Shown piece by piece: positions 38,343 through 44,634 of a stretch of DNA of 64,000 nucleotides. Below the pieces are notes generated by a model, which saw only the letters and a program-made list of their open reading frames with translations, did no database searches and had not been told where the DNA came from. The position numbers and the translations under genes were made by a program. Every line of letters begins with the position of its first letter. Within the stretch, counting starts at the first letter, position 1. This DNA is from Pseudoxanthomonas japonensis (GTDB taxonomy: Bacteria > Pseudomonadota > Gammaproteobacteria > Xanthomonadales > Xanthomonadaceae), in NCBI RefSeq assembly GCF_010093445.1, contig NZ_PDWW01000010.1:45526-109525 (forward strand), written 5' to 3'.

Positions 38343-38425
38343 GTAGGAGCGCGCCATGCGCGCGATGCTCCTGCGGCATGTCCGGCTCACGTCGGAAAAG
38401 CATCGCGCGCATGGCGCGCTCCTAC
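38343..38425. repeat. REPIN between dapD and yffB
   Basis: GTAGGAGCGCGCCATGCGCGCGATGC starts at 38343 and its inverted partner ends in CTAC at 38422-38425; both halves pair nearly perfectly. Total 83 bases, in the middle of an otherwise tight biosynthetic operon, 16 bases before the yffB start. Confidence 0.9.
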
Positions 38426-38441
38426 AAATCTCTGGAGCATC

Positions 38442-38804
38442 ATGACGACCACGCTGTATGGCTTGAAGAACTGCGACACCTGCAAGAAGGCGACCAAGTG
38501 GCTGGACCGCTTCGGTGTCGCGTATGAATTCATCGACTACCGCGACCACCGGCAATCGCCCGAGACGATGAAGGACTGGGCGGAGAAGGCGGGTGGCTGG
38601 GACGCGCTGATCAACAAGTCGTCGACGACGTGGCGGCAGTTGCCCGAGAACCGGAAGACGCCCGGTTCCGATGCGGAATGGAAGCTGCTGCTGAAGGAGT
38701 ATCCGCAGCTGATCCGCCGTCCTGTCGTCATCGGAGGCGTGGCGGGCTTTTCACAGGGCTTCAGCGACAATGGCTTCAAGAAGCAGTTCGGAGCCGGGTC
38801 GTGA
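38442..38804 (+). CDS. ArsC/Spx-family reductase (YffB-like)
   Basis: This 120-residue thioredoxin-fold protein has CDTCKKA (Cys11 and Cys14) near the N-terminus and RRPVVI near the C-terminus, as in the ArsC/Spx/YffB family. YffB-type proteins lie just upstream of dapE in many gammaproteobacteria, and this one overlaps the dapE GTG start by four bases (GTGA). It is probably a glutathione-dependent thiol reductase; arsenate reductase activity is not implied. Confidence 0.9.
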
Positions 38805-39946
38805 GCGATGTCGTCGAGCTTTCCAGCGAGCTGATCCGCCGTCATTCGGTGACGCCGGACGACGCGGGCTGCCAGCAGGTGCTGGCCACGCGGCTGGCAC
38901 AGTGGGGTTTCCAGTGCGAACACCTGCGCTTTGGCGACACCGACAATCTGTGGGCGACGCACGGAACGGGATCGCCGGTGCTGGTGTTGCTCGGCCACAC
39001 CGACGTGGTGCCGCCGGGTCCGCTGTCCGCCTGGACCAGCGATCCCTTCGTGCCGACGGTGCGCGATGGCGTGCTTTACGGGCGCGGTACCGCCGACATG
39101 AAGTGCAGCGTGGCCGCGTGCACGATCGCGCTGGAACGTTTTGTCGATGCGCATCCCGACCATCCGGGCACGGTCGCGCTGCTGGTGACCTCCGACGAGG
39201 AAGGGCCCGCGCACGATGGCGTCAAGAAAGTCGCCGAGCTGTTCCGTGAGCGAGGCCAGCGGATCGACTGGTGCATCACCGGCGAGCCGTCCTCGAAGGA
39301 AGCGCTGGGCGACTTGTTGCGCGTAGGTCGCCGCGGCACGCTGACCGGCACCTTGCAGGTACACGGCGTGCAGGGCCACGTGGCCTATCCGCACAAGGCG
39401 CTCAATCCCATCCACAAGGCATTGCCCGCGCTGGACGAACTGGCCGCGCGTCAGTGGGACGACGGTTACGAAACCTTCCCGCCGACCAGCCTGCAGATCT
39501 CCAACATCAACGCCGGCACCGGTGCCAGCAACGTCATCCCGGGTGAACTGCAGGTGGTGTTCAACCTGCGCTTCAATCCGAGCTGGACGGCTGAACGGCT
39601 GGAGCGGGAGATCGAAGGCATCTTCCGCAAGCATGGGCTGGAGTACAGCATCCAGTGGCTGCGTGGCGGCGAGCCGTTCTACACGCCGGAAGGCCACCTG
39701 CGCGCCACCGCGCGCGCGGTGCTGGGCGAGTTCGCCGGCCTGCCGCCGGAGGAGAGTACGGCCGGCGGTACGTCCGATGCGCGCTTCATCGCACCGTTGG
39801 GTGCGGAGTGCATCGAGGTAGGGCCGGTCAACGCCAGCATCCACAAGGTGGACGAGAACATCCGCATGGCCGATCTGGAAGCATTGCCGGGTCTTTATCA
39901 GAAGCTGATCGAGCGTTTGATGCTGACGGTTCGCCCGGCGCTGTAG
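38801..39946 (+). CDS. dapE: succinyl-diaminopimelate desuccinylase
   Basis: DapE (381 residues, E. coli 375) is the dinuclear zinc hydrolase that removes the succinyl group added by DapD. Zinc ligand motifs are [21 protein letters not shown] and [11 protein letters not shown] (catalytic Glu), with [11 protein letters not shown], and [10 protein letters not shown] near the end. The GTG at 38801 overlaps yffB. The TAG stop (39944-39946) is the TAG of a GTAG REP element that begins at 39943. Confidence 0.97.
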
Positions 39947-40014
39947 GAGCGCCCCATGGGCGCGACGCTTTTGCGATTCTTTCCTGAAGAGCATCGCGCC
40001 CATGGGCGCTCCTG
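39943..40014. repeat. REPIN overlapping the dapE stop codon
   Basis: GTAGGAGCGCCCCATGGGCGCGACGC begins at 39943; its inverted partner ATCGCGCCCATGGGCGCTCC lies at 39992-40012. The right-hand end has decayed from CTAC to CTGG. The left GTAG supplies the dapE stop codon. Confidence 0.88.
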
Positions 40015-40053: not shown

Positions 40054-40083
40054 TTGCCAAGCCCTGGCCTGAGCGGTTACGTT
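40054..40083 (+). promoter_or_regulatory. candidate promoter for the asn leader
   Basis: TTGCCA (40054-40059, 5 of 6 match to TTGACA) with TACGTT (40078-40083) 18 bases later is the best match upstream of the leader peptide. It would start transcription at about 40090, the first base of the leader ATG, which would explain the lack of a ribosome-binding site there. The -10 match is weak. Confidence 0.3.
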
Positions 40084-40089
40084 CGCGCC

Positions 40090-40173
40090 ATGCCCAGCCG
40101 CAACGCCATCAACAACAACCGCAATAACCTGCGCCCGAACAATCGGACGCGGGCGATGCGGCTCTGCGACTAG
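40090..40173 (+). CDS. asparagine-rich leader peptide of asnB attenuator
   Basis: A 27-codon open frame starts at 40090 and ends with TAG at 40171-40173. Eight codons are Asn (residues 5, 8, 9, 10, 12, 13, 17, 18); residues 8-13 read NNNRNN. It ends 26 bases before an intrinsic terminator that precedes asnB. Composition, size and position are those of classical leader peptides such as TrpL and HisL, so the product is expected to act only through ribosome stalling when charged Asn-tRNA is scarce. No strong ribosome-binding site is visible, and translation may be leaderless. Too short for routine gene finders. Confidence 0.85.
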   Translation: MPSRNAINNNRNNLRPNNRTRAMRLCD

Positions 40174-40228
40174 GCAACGAAAGACCTGCCGGATACCAGA
40201 AACCCGCATCGCGAGATGCGGGTTTTTT
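40096..40228 (+). promoter_or_regulatory. transcription attenuator controlling asnB
   Basis: Four segments can pair alternatively. Segment 1 (40096-40107) pairs with segment 2 (40152-40163) in 11 of 12 positions. Segment 2 (40153-40161, GCGATGCGG) pairs perfectly over 9 bp with segment 3 (40204-40212, CCGCATCGC). Segment 3 (40200-40210) pairs perfectly over 11 bp with segment 4 (40215-40225), giving the terminator. A ribosome stalled on the Asn codons covers segment 1 and frees 2:3 (antitermination). A ribosome at the leader stop covers segment 2 and allows 3:4 (termination). Without translation 1:2 forms and 3:4 terminates. The logic matches trp/his attenuation, here for asparagine. Confidence 0.85.
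40200..40228 (+). terminator. attenuator terminator upstream of asnB
   Basis: AAACCCGCATC, loop GCGA, GATGCGGGTTT, then further T bases to a run of six T (40223-40228). It lies 43 bases upstream of the asnB ATG and downstream of the Asn-rich leader peptide, so it must act as a conditional terminator for asnB. Confidence 0.93.
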
Positions 40229-40270
40229 CGTTCCGGGCGCCCGCCATCGAACCCCACCAGGAGTGTTTCC

Positions 40271-41983
40271 ATGTGTTCCATCTTCGGCATCTTCGGGCTG
40301 CAGCCCGGTGACGACGTCCAGGCGCTGCGACGGCAGTCGCTGGAACTTTCGCAGAAGCAACGCCATCGTGGTCCCGACTGGAGCGGCGTGTACCACGACG
40401 ACGGCGCCATCCTGGTGCACGAGCGCCTGGCCATCGTCGATCCGGCCGGCGGCTCGCAGCCGCTGCGTTCGGCCGACGGCGAACTGGTGCTGGCTGTCAA
40501 CGGCGAGATCTACAACCACCGCGAGCTGAAGGCGGAACTGGCGCAGGACTACGCCTTCCAGACCGGCTCGGACTGCGAGGTCATCAACGCGCTGTATCGC
40601 GAGGATGAACCTGCTTCCTTCCTCAACCGCCTCAACGGCATCTTCGCGTTCGCGCTGTGGGACAAGGCGAAGGGACGTGCGCTGATCGCGCGCGATCCCA
40701 TCGGCGTGTGTCCGTTGTACTGGGGCCATGATCGCGAGGGCCGCCTCTGCGTGGCGTCGGAGATGAAGGCGCTGGCGCCGATCTGTGCGGACGTGGCCCA
40801 GTTCCCGCCCGGGCACTATTACGAGTTCTCGACGGATGCTGAGGATGGCGGGCCAAGGCCCGCCCTACGGAAGTACTACGACACGGCGTGGCGCGACTAT
40901 GCGGCGGTGGAAGGCGTGCAACTGGCGAAGGACGAACTACGCGAGGCGTTCGAACGCGCGGTGCACCGCCAGCTGATGACCGACGTGCCTTACGGCGTAC
41001 TCCTGTCCGGTGGACTGGATTCGTCGTTGGTCGCGGCGGTTGCGGCGCGCTACGCGCGTCACCGCATCGAGGACAACGACACGACCGAAGCCTGGTGGCC
41101 GCGCCTGCATTCGTTCGCCATCGGCCTGGAAGGCTCGCCCGACCTGGCGGCGGCCGAAGTCGCGGCCAAGGCATTGGGCACGGTGCACCATGGTTTCACG
41201 TACACCTTCCAGGAAGGGCTCGATGCCATTCCCGAGGTGATCCGCCACATCGAGACCTACGACGTCACCACCATCCGCGCGTCCACGCCGATGTACCTGC
41301 TGGCGCGCCGCATCAAGGCGATGGGCGTGAAGATGGTGCTGTCCGGCGAAGGCAGCGACGAGATCTTCGGCGGCTACCTGTACTTCCACAAGGCGCCCAA
41401 CGCGCGCGAGTTCCATGAGGAACTGGTACGCAAGCTGGATGCGCTGCACAACTACGACTGCCTGCGCGCGAACAAGTCGATGATGGCGTGGGGCGTGGAG
41501 CCGCGTGTGCCGTTCCTCGATGTCGAGTTCCTCGACGTGGCGATGAAGATGGATGCCCTGCACAAGATGATCGACAAGGGCAGCGCCGGTGCGCAGCGCA
41601 TGGAGAAGGGCGTGTTGCGCGAGGCGTTCGACGGCTACCTGCCGGAATCGATCCTGTGGCGGCAGAAGGAGCAGTTCAGCGATGGCGTCGGCTACGGCTG
41701 GATCGACGGGCTGAAGGCGCATGCCGAAGCGCAGGTCAGCGACCGCGAACTCGCGGCCGCCGACAAGCGCTTCCCGGTCAACCCGCCACAGACGAAGGAG
41801 GCGTACCTCTACCGCACGCTGTTCGAGCAGCACTATCCGGGCCAGGCCTGCGCGGAGACGGTGCCGGGTGGCAAGTCGATCGCCTGTTCGTCGCCGGCGG
41901 CCATCGCCTGGGATGCGAGTTTCGCGAAGATGGCCGATCCGTCCGGTCGCGCCGTGTCAGGCGTACACAACGCGGCGCTGTAG
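40271..41983 (+). CDS. asnB: asparagine synthetase B (glutamine-hydrolysing)
   Basis: AsnB (570 residues, E. coli 554) makes asparagine from aspartate, ATP and glutamine. Cys2 is the glutaminase nucleophile (MCSIFGIFG), with RHRGPDWSG and VNGEIYNHRELK in the Ntn domain. The synthetase domain has the PP-loop VLLSGGLDSSLVAA and SGEGSDEIFGGYLYF. Ribosome-binding sequence AGGAG lies 8 bases upstream. Residues about 192-199 (DGGPRPAL) are encoded by an in-frame REP hairpin, in the linker between the two domains. Expression is probably controlled by the upstream Asn attenuator. Confidence 0.97.
   Translation: MCSIFGIFGLQPGDDVQALRRQSLELSQKQRHRGPDWSGVYHDDGAILVHERLAIVDPAGGSQPLRSADGELVLAVNGEIYNHRELKAELAQDYAFQTGSDCEVINALYREDEPASFLNRLNGIFAFALWDKAKGRALIARDPIGVCPLYWGHDREGRLCVASEMKALAPICADVAQFPPGHYYEFSTDAEDGGPRPALRKYYDTAWRDYAAVEGVQLAKDELREAFERAVHRQLMTDVPYGVLLSGGLDSSLVAAVAARYARHRIEDNDTTEAWWPRLHSFAIGLEGSPDLAAAEVAAKALGTVHHGFTYTFQEGLDAIPEVIRHIETYDVTTIRASTPMYLLARRIKAMGVKMVLSGEGSDEIFGGYLYFHKAPNAREFHEELVRKLDALHNYDCLRANKSMMAWGVEPRVPFLDVEFLDVAMKMDALHKMIDKGSAGAQRMEKGVLREAFDGYLPESILWRQKEQFSDGVGYGWIDGLKAHAEAQVSDRELAAADKRFPVNPPQTKEAYLYRTLFEQHYPGQACAETVPGGKSIACSSPAAIAWDASFAKMADPSGRAVSGVHNAAL
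40846..40868 (-). repeat. GTAG REP element inside the asnB reading frame
   Basis: On the minus strand GTAGGGCGGGCCTTGGCCCG continues to CCA (40846-40868): GTAG followed by a perfect 8-bp hairpin with a 2-base loop. It is read through in frame by asnB as DGGPRPAL. Equivalent GTAGGGYGGGCC REPs are normally intergenic in xanthomonads. Confidence 0.8.
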
Positions 41984-42240: not shown

Positions 42241-44634
42241 TCAGGGCCTCAGCGTCAGCGTGTGTCGTGCATCGCCAGGCAGGAACGGCGTCGGCCGGCC
42301 ATGCACCCAGTCATCGTGACCAGCGCCCCAGAACGGCGACATCGGGTGGCCGCTCTGGCCACCCGGCATGTGGATGATGCCGTCGGCTTCGTGACCCGGT
42401 GAGACCACCATGCGTTCCGACGCACCGAACGCCGGACCCTGCACGCGCGGCATGGCGCCGTCGCCGGCGAGCGGTTCGCCCGGCATGCACAGCGTCGGCT
42501 TGAGGAAGGCAGGCAGGGCGTTGGCCAGCGGGTGGCAGATCTTCGCGGTATTGCGCTCGCCCCAGCGACGTTGTGCGAGCGGACCTTGTCCGGCGAGATC
42601 GTCGCGCACTTCCTTGGCGGCGTCTTCCAGCAGCGCATCCCACGTCGTGTAGCGGCGCGACAGCAGGTGCGGCGGGCGCTGTTCCAGCAGCGGCCACACC
42701 GCGCCTTCCAGCTGCGGCAGGTCGGGCATGACGAAGTCGTCGCCCAGCGCGGCCTGCGCGGGCGCGGTCAGGCCGTCGGCGATACGCGCATGCACCGCCA
42801 GGCGCCAGGCGCGCACCAGCCGGTAGCTCACCGAATCGACGCTGGCGACGCCTTCCCAGGTCCTGCCGGCATCGGCGAGCGTCTTCACCGACGAATCCGC
42901 CGGCATCCGCTTCGCTTCGTCCTGCAGCAGCTGCCACCAGCGCTCGAGAAACAAGGCGCGGTCGTCGAGCTGGATCGCCAGCAGGTCCTGCTCGGTGAAT
43001 CGCTCCTTCGCCAGCAGGCCGTCGCGGATCTGCTTTGCACGTGCACCCAGCGCGTAGCCGCCGTCGCCCACGCGGTCGAGCGCAGCGCCATCCAGCACGC
43101 GCGCGTTCGCCGTCCACAGGCGGTGGCTGGTCTGCGAGGTGAGTACCGGCGAGAGCTGGCTGGAAATGACCCAGGGCCGGCAACTGCCGGGCGGCTGCGG
43201 CGCCACGTCGTTCGCGGGCGCTGCCGGTGCGAGTTCCAGCGTATGCGGGCACGACGCCGCGCGCGACGGTAGCGGGCCGAGGATACGCCAGGCGATGCGG
43301 CCGTTGTGGTCGGCGATCACCAGGTTCTGCGCTGGCGTCGCGGTGCGTTGCGCCACCGACAGCGCGGCCGACAGGTCGCCGGCCGCAGCAAAGTCCGCCA
43401 GCCCGAAGTTCAGCGCGCCTGGCTGGTGCGCGACCCAGCGCAAGGCCAGCGCCGGCTGCTTGTCCTTCGCGGCATGGAGGATCGGCCCGTAGCGCGTTTC
43501 CGGCACGTCCAGCGTCACCGGCTCGCCACCAGCAACCTCGATCGTTTCGGCATGGTGTTCGACCGCGTCGCAGGTCTCCGCCGCATCGTCCTCCCCGCAG
43601 GGTTTCACCGGGTACCAGTCCGCGGTGTCCGCGTAGCTGTTGGTGAAGCCCCACGCCACGTGCCCGTTGCTGCCCACGATGACCGCCGGCAGGCCGGGCA
43701 GGCTGAAGCCGGAGACATCGACCTTGCCGCCTGGCGCGCGCGGATCCGGATAGCGCAGGCGCACGCGGAACCAGATGTTCGGCGCGCGCAGCCCCAGGTG
43801 CATGTCGTCGGCGACGATGGCGCGGCCGTCGGCCGTCAGTGCGCCGGCCACGGCCCAGTTGTTGCTGCCGGGCGTGCCCTTGTCGGCGAGGCGCTGGTGC
43901 GTGCCGGCTTCCGGCATCGGCAGCGTACGCAGGTCGACCTGGTCGGCGGTCGGCAGGGGCGCATTGCCGCGCGGCTCGCCCTGCAGCGGCGCATCCCACT
44001 CGGTGCCGTCGTGGGCCAGCAGCGCATACAGTGCGGGCGGCACCTGGCGACGGATCTTCCACAGGCCGAGCTCGCGCACGTTGTCCGCGTCCTGCAGATC
44101 GAAGTACATGGCATAGCCGGCCAGCGCCGAGTCGGCCACTTCCCACTTGCGCGGCGACTGGCGCAGCAGCAGGTACGGCCAGGGGCGGGACTTCAATGCC
44201 CCCAGGCCATCGTTGACGCCGTCCGCATAGGCCTGCAGCTGCGGCATGCGGTCGCCGGCGAAGCCCTCCAGCGATGCATCGACGCGTGCGCGCATGCGGT
44301 GCATGCGGCGTCCCTTGTCCATGTCCACCGCAATCGGGCCGAACAGGCCGGACAGCTCGCCGGCGGAACTGCGCCGCATCAGGTCCATTTCGAAGTAGCG
44401 CTCCTGCGCATGCACGAAACCGAGCGCGCGCATGGCGTCGGTTTCACTGGCGGCGTCGATGGTCACCACGCCCAGGGCATCGCGCTGGAGGGAGACGGGT
44501 GCCGACAGCCCGGGCAGCGCCTGTTCGCCATCGAGGCGGGCCAGGCTGCTCCGCATCGACCACCACGCCACCAGCAACGCCACGACCACCAGGGCCAACA
44601 ACAGCAGCGCGATGCGCCGGGTCCACTTCAGCAT
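42241..44634 (-). CDS. penicillin acylase family protein (Ntn hydrolase)
   Basis: This 797-residue protein has an N-terminal membrane anchor ([18 protein letters not shown]) and belongs to the penicillin G acylase / AHL acylase / aculeacin acylase family. These precursors cut themselves into alpha and beta chains; the new N-terminal Ser nucleophile is Ser257 in [13 protein letters not shown]. Other family segments are [10 protein letters not shown] and [25 protein letters not shown] C-terminal sequence ([20 protein letters not shown]). It is a periplasmic amidohydrolase; quorum-signal, peptide or antibiotic substrates are all possible. It is divergent from the bacterioferritin gene. Confidence 0.9.

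What the first reader, a model, noticed from the sequence alone, without database searches (positions are those of the whole stretch)
40090..40270. Complete asparagine-responsive transcription attenuator in front of asnB
A 27-codon open frame with 8 Asn codons (including NNNRNN) precedes an intrinsic terminator and asnB. Four pairing segments give mutually exclusive folds: 1:2 (40096-40107 with 40152-40163, 11 of 12), 2:3 antiterminator (40153-40161 with 40204-40212, 9 of 9), 3:4 terminator (40200-40210 with 40215-40225, 11 of 11). Spacing fits ribosome stalling at the Asn codons (40111-40146), which would leave segment 2 free, and release at the stop (40171), which would cover it. Leader-peptide attenuation is well known for trp, his, thr, ilv, leu and phe operons; I am not aware of a described asparagine example.
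Basis: partly seen in the sequence, partly recalled or inferred. Interest (0 to 1): 0.93.

Follow-up and report, generated by a model that had tools for sequence, protein, structure and literature searches.

The report
Asparagine-sensing switch before asnB
In front of the bacterial gene that makes asparagine lies a short asparagine-rich reading frame followed by RNA that can fold into either of two competing hairpins, a layout kept across Xanthomonas and its relatives and predicted to let ribosomes that stall for lack of asparagine switch the gene on; our searches of open papers showed no earlier attenuator for this amino acid.

Summary
Window 40090-40173 encodes MPSRNAINNNRNNLRPNNRTRAMRLCD (8 Asn of 27), followed by an intrinsic terminator and asnB (NCBIfam asparagine synthase B, 870 bits). 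The stated 1:2, 2:3 and 3:4 pairings are present. Of 99 distinct asnB upstream regions, 93 carry the leader plus terminator; 4 lack it, 2 could not be judged. Asn codons are 22.6% of codons in frame, 0% and 0.2% in the other frames. Terminator and antiterminator covary. The design recurs with other peptide ends and stem letters in 18 of 19 loci of a second family of the order (f12) and 3 of 3 of a third (f2); of 35 loci from f4, f5, f7, f9 and f10, one meets the same rule. The genome has AsnRS and no GatB match, so Asn-tRNA should depend on free asparagine. New here: 80 of 93 leaders have a TAnnnT box 6-8 nt before the ATG and 9 an SD-like motif, so the leader mRNA is probably leaderless. In form it is classical ribosome-mediated attenuation with, as far as our searches show, a new amino acid. 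No expression data were available.

The parts
40054..40059 (+). predicted -35 element TTGCCA of the leader promoter (18 nt from the -10)
   Evidence: sequence; TTGC/TTGA begins at -37 to -35 before the leader ATG, 92 matches in 93 sequences. Not found by the strict sigma-70 scan; no experiment.
40078..40083 (+). predicted -10 element TACGTT, ending 6 nt before the leader ATG, so the transcript would start at or next to that ATG
   Evidence: TAnnnT ends 6, 7 or 8 nt before the leader ATG in 43, 35 and 2 of 93; C at -1 in 92 of 93.
40090..40173 (+). leader peptide frame MPSRNAINNNRNNLRPNNRTRAMRLCD, 8 Asn
   Evidence: sequence; Asn kept in one frame; in-frame pS/pN 2.80 against 1.27 and 0.63 in the shifted frames.
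40111..40143 (+). control region NNNRNNLRPNN, predicted stalling site
   Evidence: AsnAsn in 91 of 93 leaders.
40119..40123 (+). widely kept alternative core of segment 1, CCGCA, able to pair with UGCGG 40157-40161
   Evidence: 95.8% of cells paired, but nearly invariant, so no covariation for or against.
40128..40153 (+). hairpin P1 inside 1:2, with the last Asn-Asn codons at its loop
   Evidence: on its own not more stable than shuffles (z -0.85, 48 of 200).
40153..40161 (+). segment 2, 5' arm of the antiterminator
40198..40228 (+). intrinsic terminator (segments 3:4) with T-run
40204..40212 (+). segment 3, shared by antiterminator and terminator
40271..41983 (+). asnB, asparagine synthase B, the gene that would be controlled
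   Evidence: NF006949 870 bits (cut-off 499).
38630..39946 (+). upstream neighbour dapE, not part of the switch
   Evidence: TIGR01246 536.4 bits (cut-off 361.8).

Best explanation
The 180 bases before asnB hold an Asn-rich leader frame whose RNA can fold either as a terminator or as a competing antiterminator, and it likely works as a ribosome-mediated transcription attenuator that would turn asnB on when charged Asn-tRNA is scarce. Shown by sequence: the frame, its terminator, the mutually exclusive pairings, their conservation and covariation, and a genome with AsnRS and no GatB match. Inferred: transcription would start at or next to the leader ATG (leaderless mRNA). With enough Asn-tRNA the ribosome would reach the TAG at 40171, cover segment 2, and let 3:4 end transcription. 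When Asn-tRNA runs short the ribosome would stall at NNNRNN or the following NN, mask segment 1 and open hairpin P1, so that segment 2 pairs with segment 3 and RNA polymerase reads into asnB. Without translation, 1:2 plus P1 would form and the terminator would stand.
For: Leader plus terminator in 93 of 99 distinct asnB upstream regions. Asn codons 616 of 2724 in frame, 0 of 2631 and 4 of 2631 in the other frames; AAC 333, AAT 283, so the amino acid is kept rather than the bases; in-frame pS/pN 2.80 and 1.56 in two clades, above both shifted frames in each. Terminator: 98.1% of cells paired, 46 cells changed on both sides against 8.8 in shuffles. Antiterminator: 82.6% paired, 40 such cells against 16.9 in shuffles and 1-11 when slid. 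Own segments 2 and 3 pair better than swapped ones: mean score 26.55 against 22.21, 0 of 2000 permutations as high, 122 sequences. Same design in 18 of 19 f12 and 3 of 3 f2 loci. AsnRS 632 bits, no GatB match. Leader codons 94% identical among 11 Xanthomonas, spacer after the terminator 46%. A leader of like layout (LLVLVLITS) lies before ilvC in the same genome.
Against: No expression, 5'-end or ribosome data. For 2:3, the number of pairs changed on both sides (243 of 500 shuffles as high) and of pair types (290 of 500) is not beyond shuffles. The slid terminator reaches 26 both-side cells at +3; slid P1 reaches 33, above its own 23. P1 alone is not more stable than shuffles. The 1:2 core hardly varies, so it cannot covary. 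16 of 93 sequences do not beat a shuffled segment 2 at 0.05. Permutations and shuffles do not allow for relatedness. Three asnB genes of the window's family (L097, L131, L157) have no such leader.
Confidence: 0.9

Rival explanations
1. The hairpin is only the ordinary terminator of dapE, and asnB has its own promoter downstream of it; the Asn-rich frame is incidental.
For: dapE lies upstream on the same strand; 28-103 nt separate terminator and asnB, enough for a promoter.
Against: The conserved promoter-like boxes lie just before the leader. The spacer after the terminator is little conserved (46% in 11 Xanthomonas). The antiterminator pairing and the in-frame Asn have no place in this reading.
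Confidence: 0.04
2. An untranslated RNA element (riboswitch, T-box or protein-bound leader) senses asparagine or tRNA-Asn directly; the AAY-rich stretch is a binding site.
For: Strong folds (z -4.3); the terminator/antiterminator logic is shared by such elements.
Against: Asn codons in one frame only, AAC/AAT mixed, and an in-frame stop a median 9 nt after the segment 2 core. No Rfam family reached its gathering score here; a permissive scan of five examples gave 7 matches, all below gathering, the leader families among them being Thr_leader and Trp_leader.
Confidence: 0.03
3. Attenuator as proposed, but the signal is general slowing of translation or another amino acid (Arg is also frequent) rather than asparagine.
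For: The leader C-terminus of most members is Arg-rich (RARPMR).
Against: The Arg codons lie in the pairing segments and the C-terminus changes where the stems change (ASLPRAGD in Lysobacter; TRNDGWAGV in f12), whereas the Asn runs stay. The gene makes asparagine.
Confidence: 0.03

Closest known systems
Classical ribosome-mediated attenuators of amino acid operons (trp, his, leu, thr, ilvGMEDA, ilvBN, pheA; named in PMC1183508, passages seen)
   Same: Leader frame rich in the codon of the product; mutually exclusive terminator and antiterminator; leader stop placed to cover segment 2.
   Different: The regulatory codon is asparagine, a word that does not occur in PMC1183508, PMC1262725, PMC2965389 or PMC4833913 (term counts); the controlled unit appears to be one gene, asnB.
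Sinorhizobium meliloti trpL/rnTrpL attenuator (PMC7298713, passages seen)
   Same: Its transcript starts with the ATG of the leader frame, i.e. it is leaderless; the same is predicted here.
   Different: Tryptophan, an alphaproteobacterium; there the 5' end is reported in the paper, here it is inferred from promoter spacing.
ilvC leader of the same genome (G000:C66:55245-55417, locus L217)
   Same: Like layout: short leader (LLVLVLITS), CCCCGCACT...AGTGCGGGG terminator, biosynthetic gene behind; matched by covariance model R1 at 45.6 bits.
   Different: Branched-chain codons; by eye no box at leaderless distance was obvious.
T-box leaders (recalled)
   Same: Gene-specific response to tRNA charging by terminator/antiterminator choice.
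   Different: No T-box at gathering score in the window; here a reading frame would be the sensor.

Membership tests
ribosome-mediated transcription attenuator | short leader frame with several codons of the amino acid made by the controlled gene | tested here: met
   8 Asn before asnB; 5 or more Asn in 90 of 93 leaders.
ribosome-mediated transcription attenuator | the leader is a translated, selected reading frame | tested here: met
   by codon statistics only; no ribosome profiling or peptide data.
ribosome-mediated transcription attenuator | intrinsic terminator between leader and gene | tested here: met
   termination itself not measured.
ribosome-mediated transcription attenuator | antiterminator that excludes the terminator, kept by covariation | tested here: met
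   two of five measures are not beyond shuffles.
ribosome-mediated transcription attenuator | anti-antiterminator (1:2) upstream | tested here: inconclusive
   Pairing present; core nearly invariant, exact arms differ between clades.
ribosome-mediated transcription attenuator | leader stop placed so that a terminating ribosome covers segment 2 | tested here: met
   median 9 nt, range 0-18, between the segment 2 core and the stop (92 of 93 measured); footprint size is recalled.
ribosome-mediated transcription attenuator | read-through rises when the cognate charged tRNA is limiting | not testable with these tools
   Needs reporter or RNA data.
leaderless mRNA | transcript begins at the start codon, no Shine-Dalgarno | tested here: inconclusive
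   boxes and spacing fit, SD-like motif before 9 of 93 leaders against 89 of 93 asnB genes; no 5'-end data.
any family of Rfam 15 | match at gathering score | tested here: not met
   only a tRNA in the window.

The most novel reading that the evidence does not exclude
A leaderless, asparagine-specific attenuator is the main switch of asparagine synthesis in the Xanthomonas family and at least two sister families: RNA polymerase starts on the leader ATG itself, the bare 5' end loads a ribosome at once, and that ribosome's pace over the Asn codons decides whether asnB is transcribed. It would be the first attenuator described for asparagine, and its terminated RNA of about 140 nt would be a tiny leaderless mRNA.
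Probability: 0.65. Interest if true: 0.78.

Novelty: new variant of a known kind. Interest (0 to 1): 0.7.

Why it matters
Leader-peptide attenuation is a textbook mechanism with a short list of amino acids. This would add asparagine, with comparative support in three families of one order, and it names a directly testable switch for asparagine synthesis. The predicted leaderless start makes it a good case for how ribosome and polymerase are kept in step without a Shine-Dalgarno site. It also gives annotators a marker: the element in the window has no Rfam match at gathering score.

Tried and rejected
Covariance model R1 over 79 genomes of the family was meant to find Asn leaders before other genes. 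The one non-asnB hit of the window's genome that I followed (45.6 bits) is an ilvC leader; hits in G025 and G089 read alike by eye. Of nine loci fetched, L220 and L222-L225 were not looked at, and L221 was only searched for the ilv motif, without a match. Weaker hits, many of them covering only the terminator end of the model, were not followed. All 79 genomes match at E <= 1, so that tally is no evidence of presence.

Outside the order: of 229 genomes, 3 beyond the window's family have an NF006949 asnB at E <= 1e-150; upstream of these the best frame has 3, 3 and 2 Asn in 16 codons. Asparagine synthetases of other families were not examined.

Scoring terminators for the 26 loci by the rule gave one that meets it, L150 (MFAIYNTINTTNNRLLRSAGSF, 4 Asn, then AAAAGCCCGC-TTCAAAA-GCGGGCTTTT, 78 nt before asnB). 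The text now says so.

Papers: ten searches of open PMC papers listed no paper that in title or abstract start describes an asparagine attenuator; lists were cut at 8-20 rows where more papers matched (e.g. 340). I opened passages, not whole texts, of PMC2965389, PMC3771888, PMC11282234, PMC1262725, PMC1183508, PMC7298713, PMC2659441 and PMC4833913. The main comparative survey of proteobacterial attenuators (Vitreschak 2004, seen only in the reference list of PMC1262725) is not held, nor is the Xanthomonas transcriptome paper that I tried. PMC3771888 names an AsnB2 (XCV1533) with qRT-PCR ratios of 1.0; I did not check that it is this gene. The novelty claim is limited to what is held.

Rows dropped before counts: of 99 distinct upstream regions, L055 (6 bases held), L073 (run of N, partial Asn-rich leader visible) and L097, L100, L105, L110 (no leader) are not in alignment A1 (93 rows). 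L100, L105 and L110 bear labels of other taxa. In one search the 11 Xanthomonas rows were chosen by me for equal leader length.

That f12 is Rhodanobacteraceae is a guess.

Full report
What is there. Searches show an ATG at 40090 and a 27-codon frame, MPSRNAINNNRNNLRPNNRTRAMRLCD, ending at TAG 40171-40173, then AAACCCGCATC-GCGA-GATGCGGGTTTTTT, then asnB from 40271. The leader 40090-40230 folds with 1:2 and the terminator together (z -4.3, 0 of 200 shuffles as stable), and 40146-40213 folds as the antiterminator (z -3.2, 1 of 200); the inner hairpin P1 alone is not beyond shuffles (z -0.85, 48 of 200). A slightly longer stretch gives another outer helix. In the window no other short frame combines such Asn density with a terminator (the whole genome was not given as a file).

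Conservation. asnB relatives came from 61 genomes (30 loci kept) and from named GTDB contigs (best 80 of 584). They give 99 distinct upstream regions. One is too short and one has a run of N; four have no leader (L097 of a Lysobacteraceae; L100, L105 and L110 labelled Tardiphaga, Rhodopseudomonas and Planctomycetota). The other 93 have an Asn-rich frame and a terminator of 8 or more pairs: 5 or more Asn in 90, AsnAsn in 91; L035 has only 3 Asn. Named holders include Pseudoxanthomonas, Xanthomonas, Stenotrophomonas, Luteimonas, Lysobacter, Thermomonas and Vulcaniibacterium. Peptides differ: NNRARPMRVCD at the end in most, RGT...RARxRARA in the Thermomonas type, NNNNRNNASLPRAGD in the Lysobacter type.

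Wider reach. 58 further upstream regions were fetched (my choice of places). By the rule (3 or more Asn in 16 codons and terminator score 24 or more) 46 have the element: 25 of 25 in f1 (the window's family; partly the same species as), 18 of 19 in f12, 3 of 3 in f2, and 0 of 11 in f4, f5, f7, f9 and f10. Another 26 loci were scored by the same rule: 0 of 2 in f1 (L131, L157), 1 of 23 in f7, 0 of 1 in f9. So outside f1, f2 and f12 the rule is met in 1 of 35 loci; that one, L150, reads MFAIYNTINTTNNRLLRSAGSF before a perfect GCCCGC:GCGGGC terminator and may be a diverged or independent case. L139 had only 95 bases to score. In f12 the peptides end NNNNANNNTRNDGWAGV or NNNRANNNANRWRARA, and the terminator is built on GGCCCGC:GCGGGCC instead of ACCCGCATC:GATGCGGGT. 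In three f12 loci (L168, L173, L174) the script found only 5-pair 2:3 helices, and in L115 one outside the usual core. What persists over these families is a run of Asn codons, a stop after a GC-rich segment, and the terminator.

Is it translated? Over the 93 leaders, Asn codons are 616 of 2724 in frame and 0 and 4 of 2631 in the other two; AAC 333, AAT 283. In-frame pS/pN is 2.80 (13 Pseudoxanthomonas-type leaders) and 1.56 (10 Xanthomonas-type), above the shifted frames (1.27 and 0.63; 0.89 and 0.53). These sets are small and part of the frame is also under RNA constraint. The leaders were picked for Asn content, so the frame comparison is partly built in; the AAC/AAT mix and pS/pN are not.

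Is the RNA logic selected? On alignment A1: terminator 98.1% of cells paired, 6 pairs and 46 cells changed on both sides (shuffles 3.4 and 8.8), slid versions 1-26 cells. Antiterminator 82.6% paired, 40 such cells (shuffles 16.9), slid 1-11, while pairs changed and pair types do not exceed shuffles. Hairpin P1 78.9% paired, 23 such cells (shuffles 8.7), but one slid version reaches 33. The structures were taken from one of the sequences, which favours them in the slid control, and segment 3 takes part in both stems, so these are not independent tests. The swap test avoids the alignment: own 2:3 score 26.55, swapped 22.21 (sd 0.41), 0 of 2000 as high; own is at or above the median of swaps in 115 of 122 and strictly above it in 87; relatedness is not corrected for. 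A telling single case is L108: GCAGGCC pairs with GGCCTGC where related L104 has GCGGGC with GCCCGC, a change on both sides of 2:3 that leaves a U-G in the terminator.

Leaderless start. In 93 sequences a TAnnnT box ends 6, 7 or 8 nt before the leader ATG in 43, 35 and 2; TTGC/TTGA begins at -37 to -35 (92 matches); -1 is C in 92; SD-like motifs lie before the leader in 9 and before asnB in 89. Several f12 leaders show CTTGC and TAGTC-like boxes at like distance by eye. The strict promoter scan found none in the window stretch. The expected transcript starts at or beside the ATG; this step is inferred. Such a start is described for S. meliloti trpL (PMC7298713, passages).

Physiology. The window's genome has AsnRS (632 bits, cut-off 342.6) and no GatB match, so Asn-tRNA should be charged from free asparagine only. 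In 160 genomes of the order AsnRS is found in 148 and GatB in 47, none of them in f1. None of those 47 handles is among the 214 genomes with NF006949. An Asn-codon sensor would thus read the product of AsnB.

Working model. See the best explanation. The ribosome at TAG would cover segment 2 (median 9 nt from its core). A ribosome stalled on NNNRNN would sit on the CCGCA core and the foot of P1. Footprint sizes are recalled and come from no call.

Known or new. In form it is a classical attenuator. PMC1183508 names trp, his, leu, thr, ilv and phe operons (passages); the words for asparagine do not occur in PMC1262725, PMC2965389 or PMC4833913 as a regulated amino acid, and PMC2659441 names none. 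Ten full-text searches listed no such case. Papers that are not open were not covered. Hence: known mechanism, apparently new amino acid, probably leaderless.

Noticed in passing
L217:150-470 (G000:C66:55245-55417): A leader (...AASLLVLVLITSPTTAGRTGV*) with terminator before ilvC in the window's genome, apparently a branched-chain attenuator; alike in L218 and L219.
   Followed up: partly
L150 (G117, family f7), 78 nt before asnB: A 22-codon frame with 4 Asn in NTINTTNN followed by a strong terminator: a possible diverged or independent asparagine attenuator outside the three families.
   Followed up: partly
window 39943-40013: GTAGGAGCGCCCCATGGGCGCGAC and its inverted copy between dapE and the asnB leader; a related inverted pair lies at 38343-38425. 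It looks like a REP-type palindrome (recalled).
   Followed up: partly
order-wide: Asparagine synthase B and GatB seem to exclude each other: none of the 47 GatB-positive genomes is among the 214 asnB-positive ones.
   Followed up: partly
L131 and L157 (G269, G126), L097: asnB genes of the window's family without an Asn-rich leader; how they are controlled is unknown.
   Followed up: no
window 42241-44634, - strand: 797-aa frame convergent with asnB; only a weak NCBIfam match (PvdQ acylase, 28.4 bits, cut-off 950), so asnB looks like a single-gene unit.
   Followed up: partly
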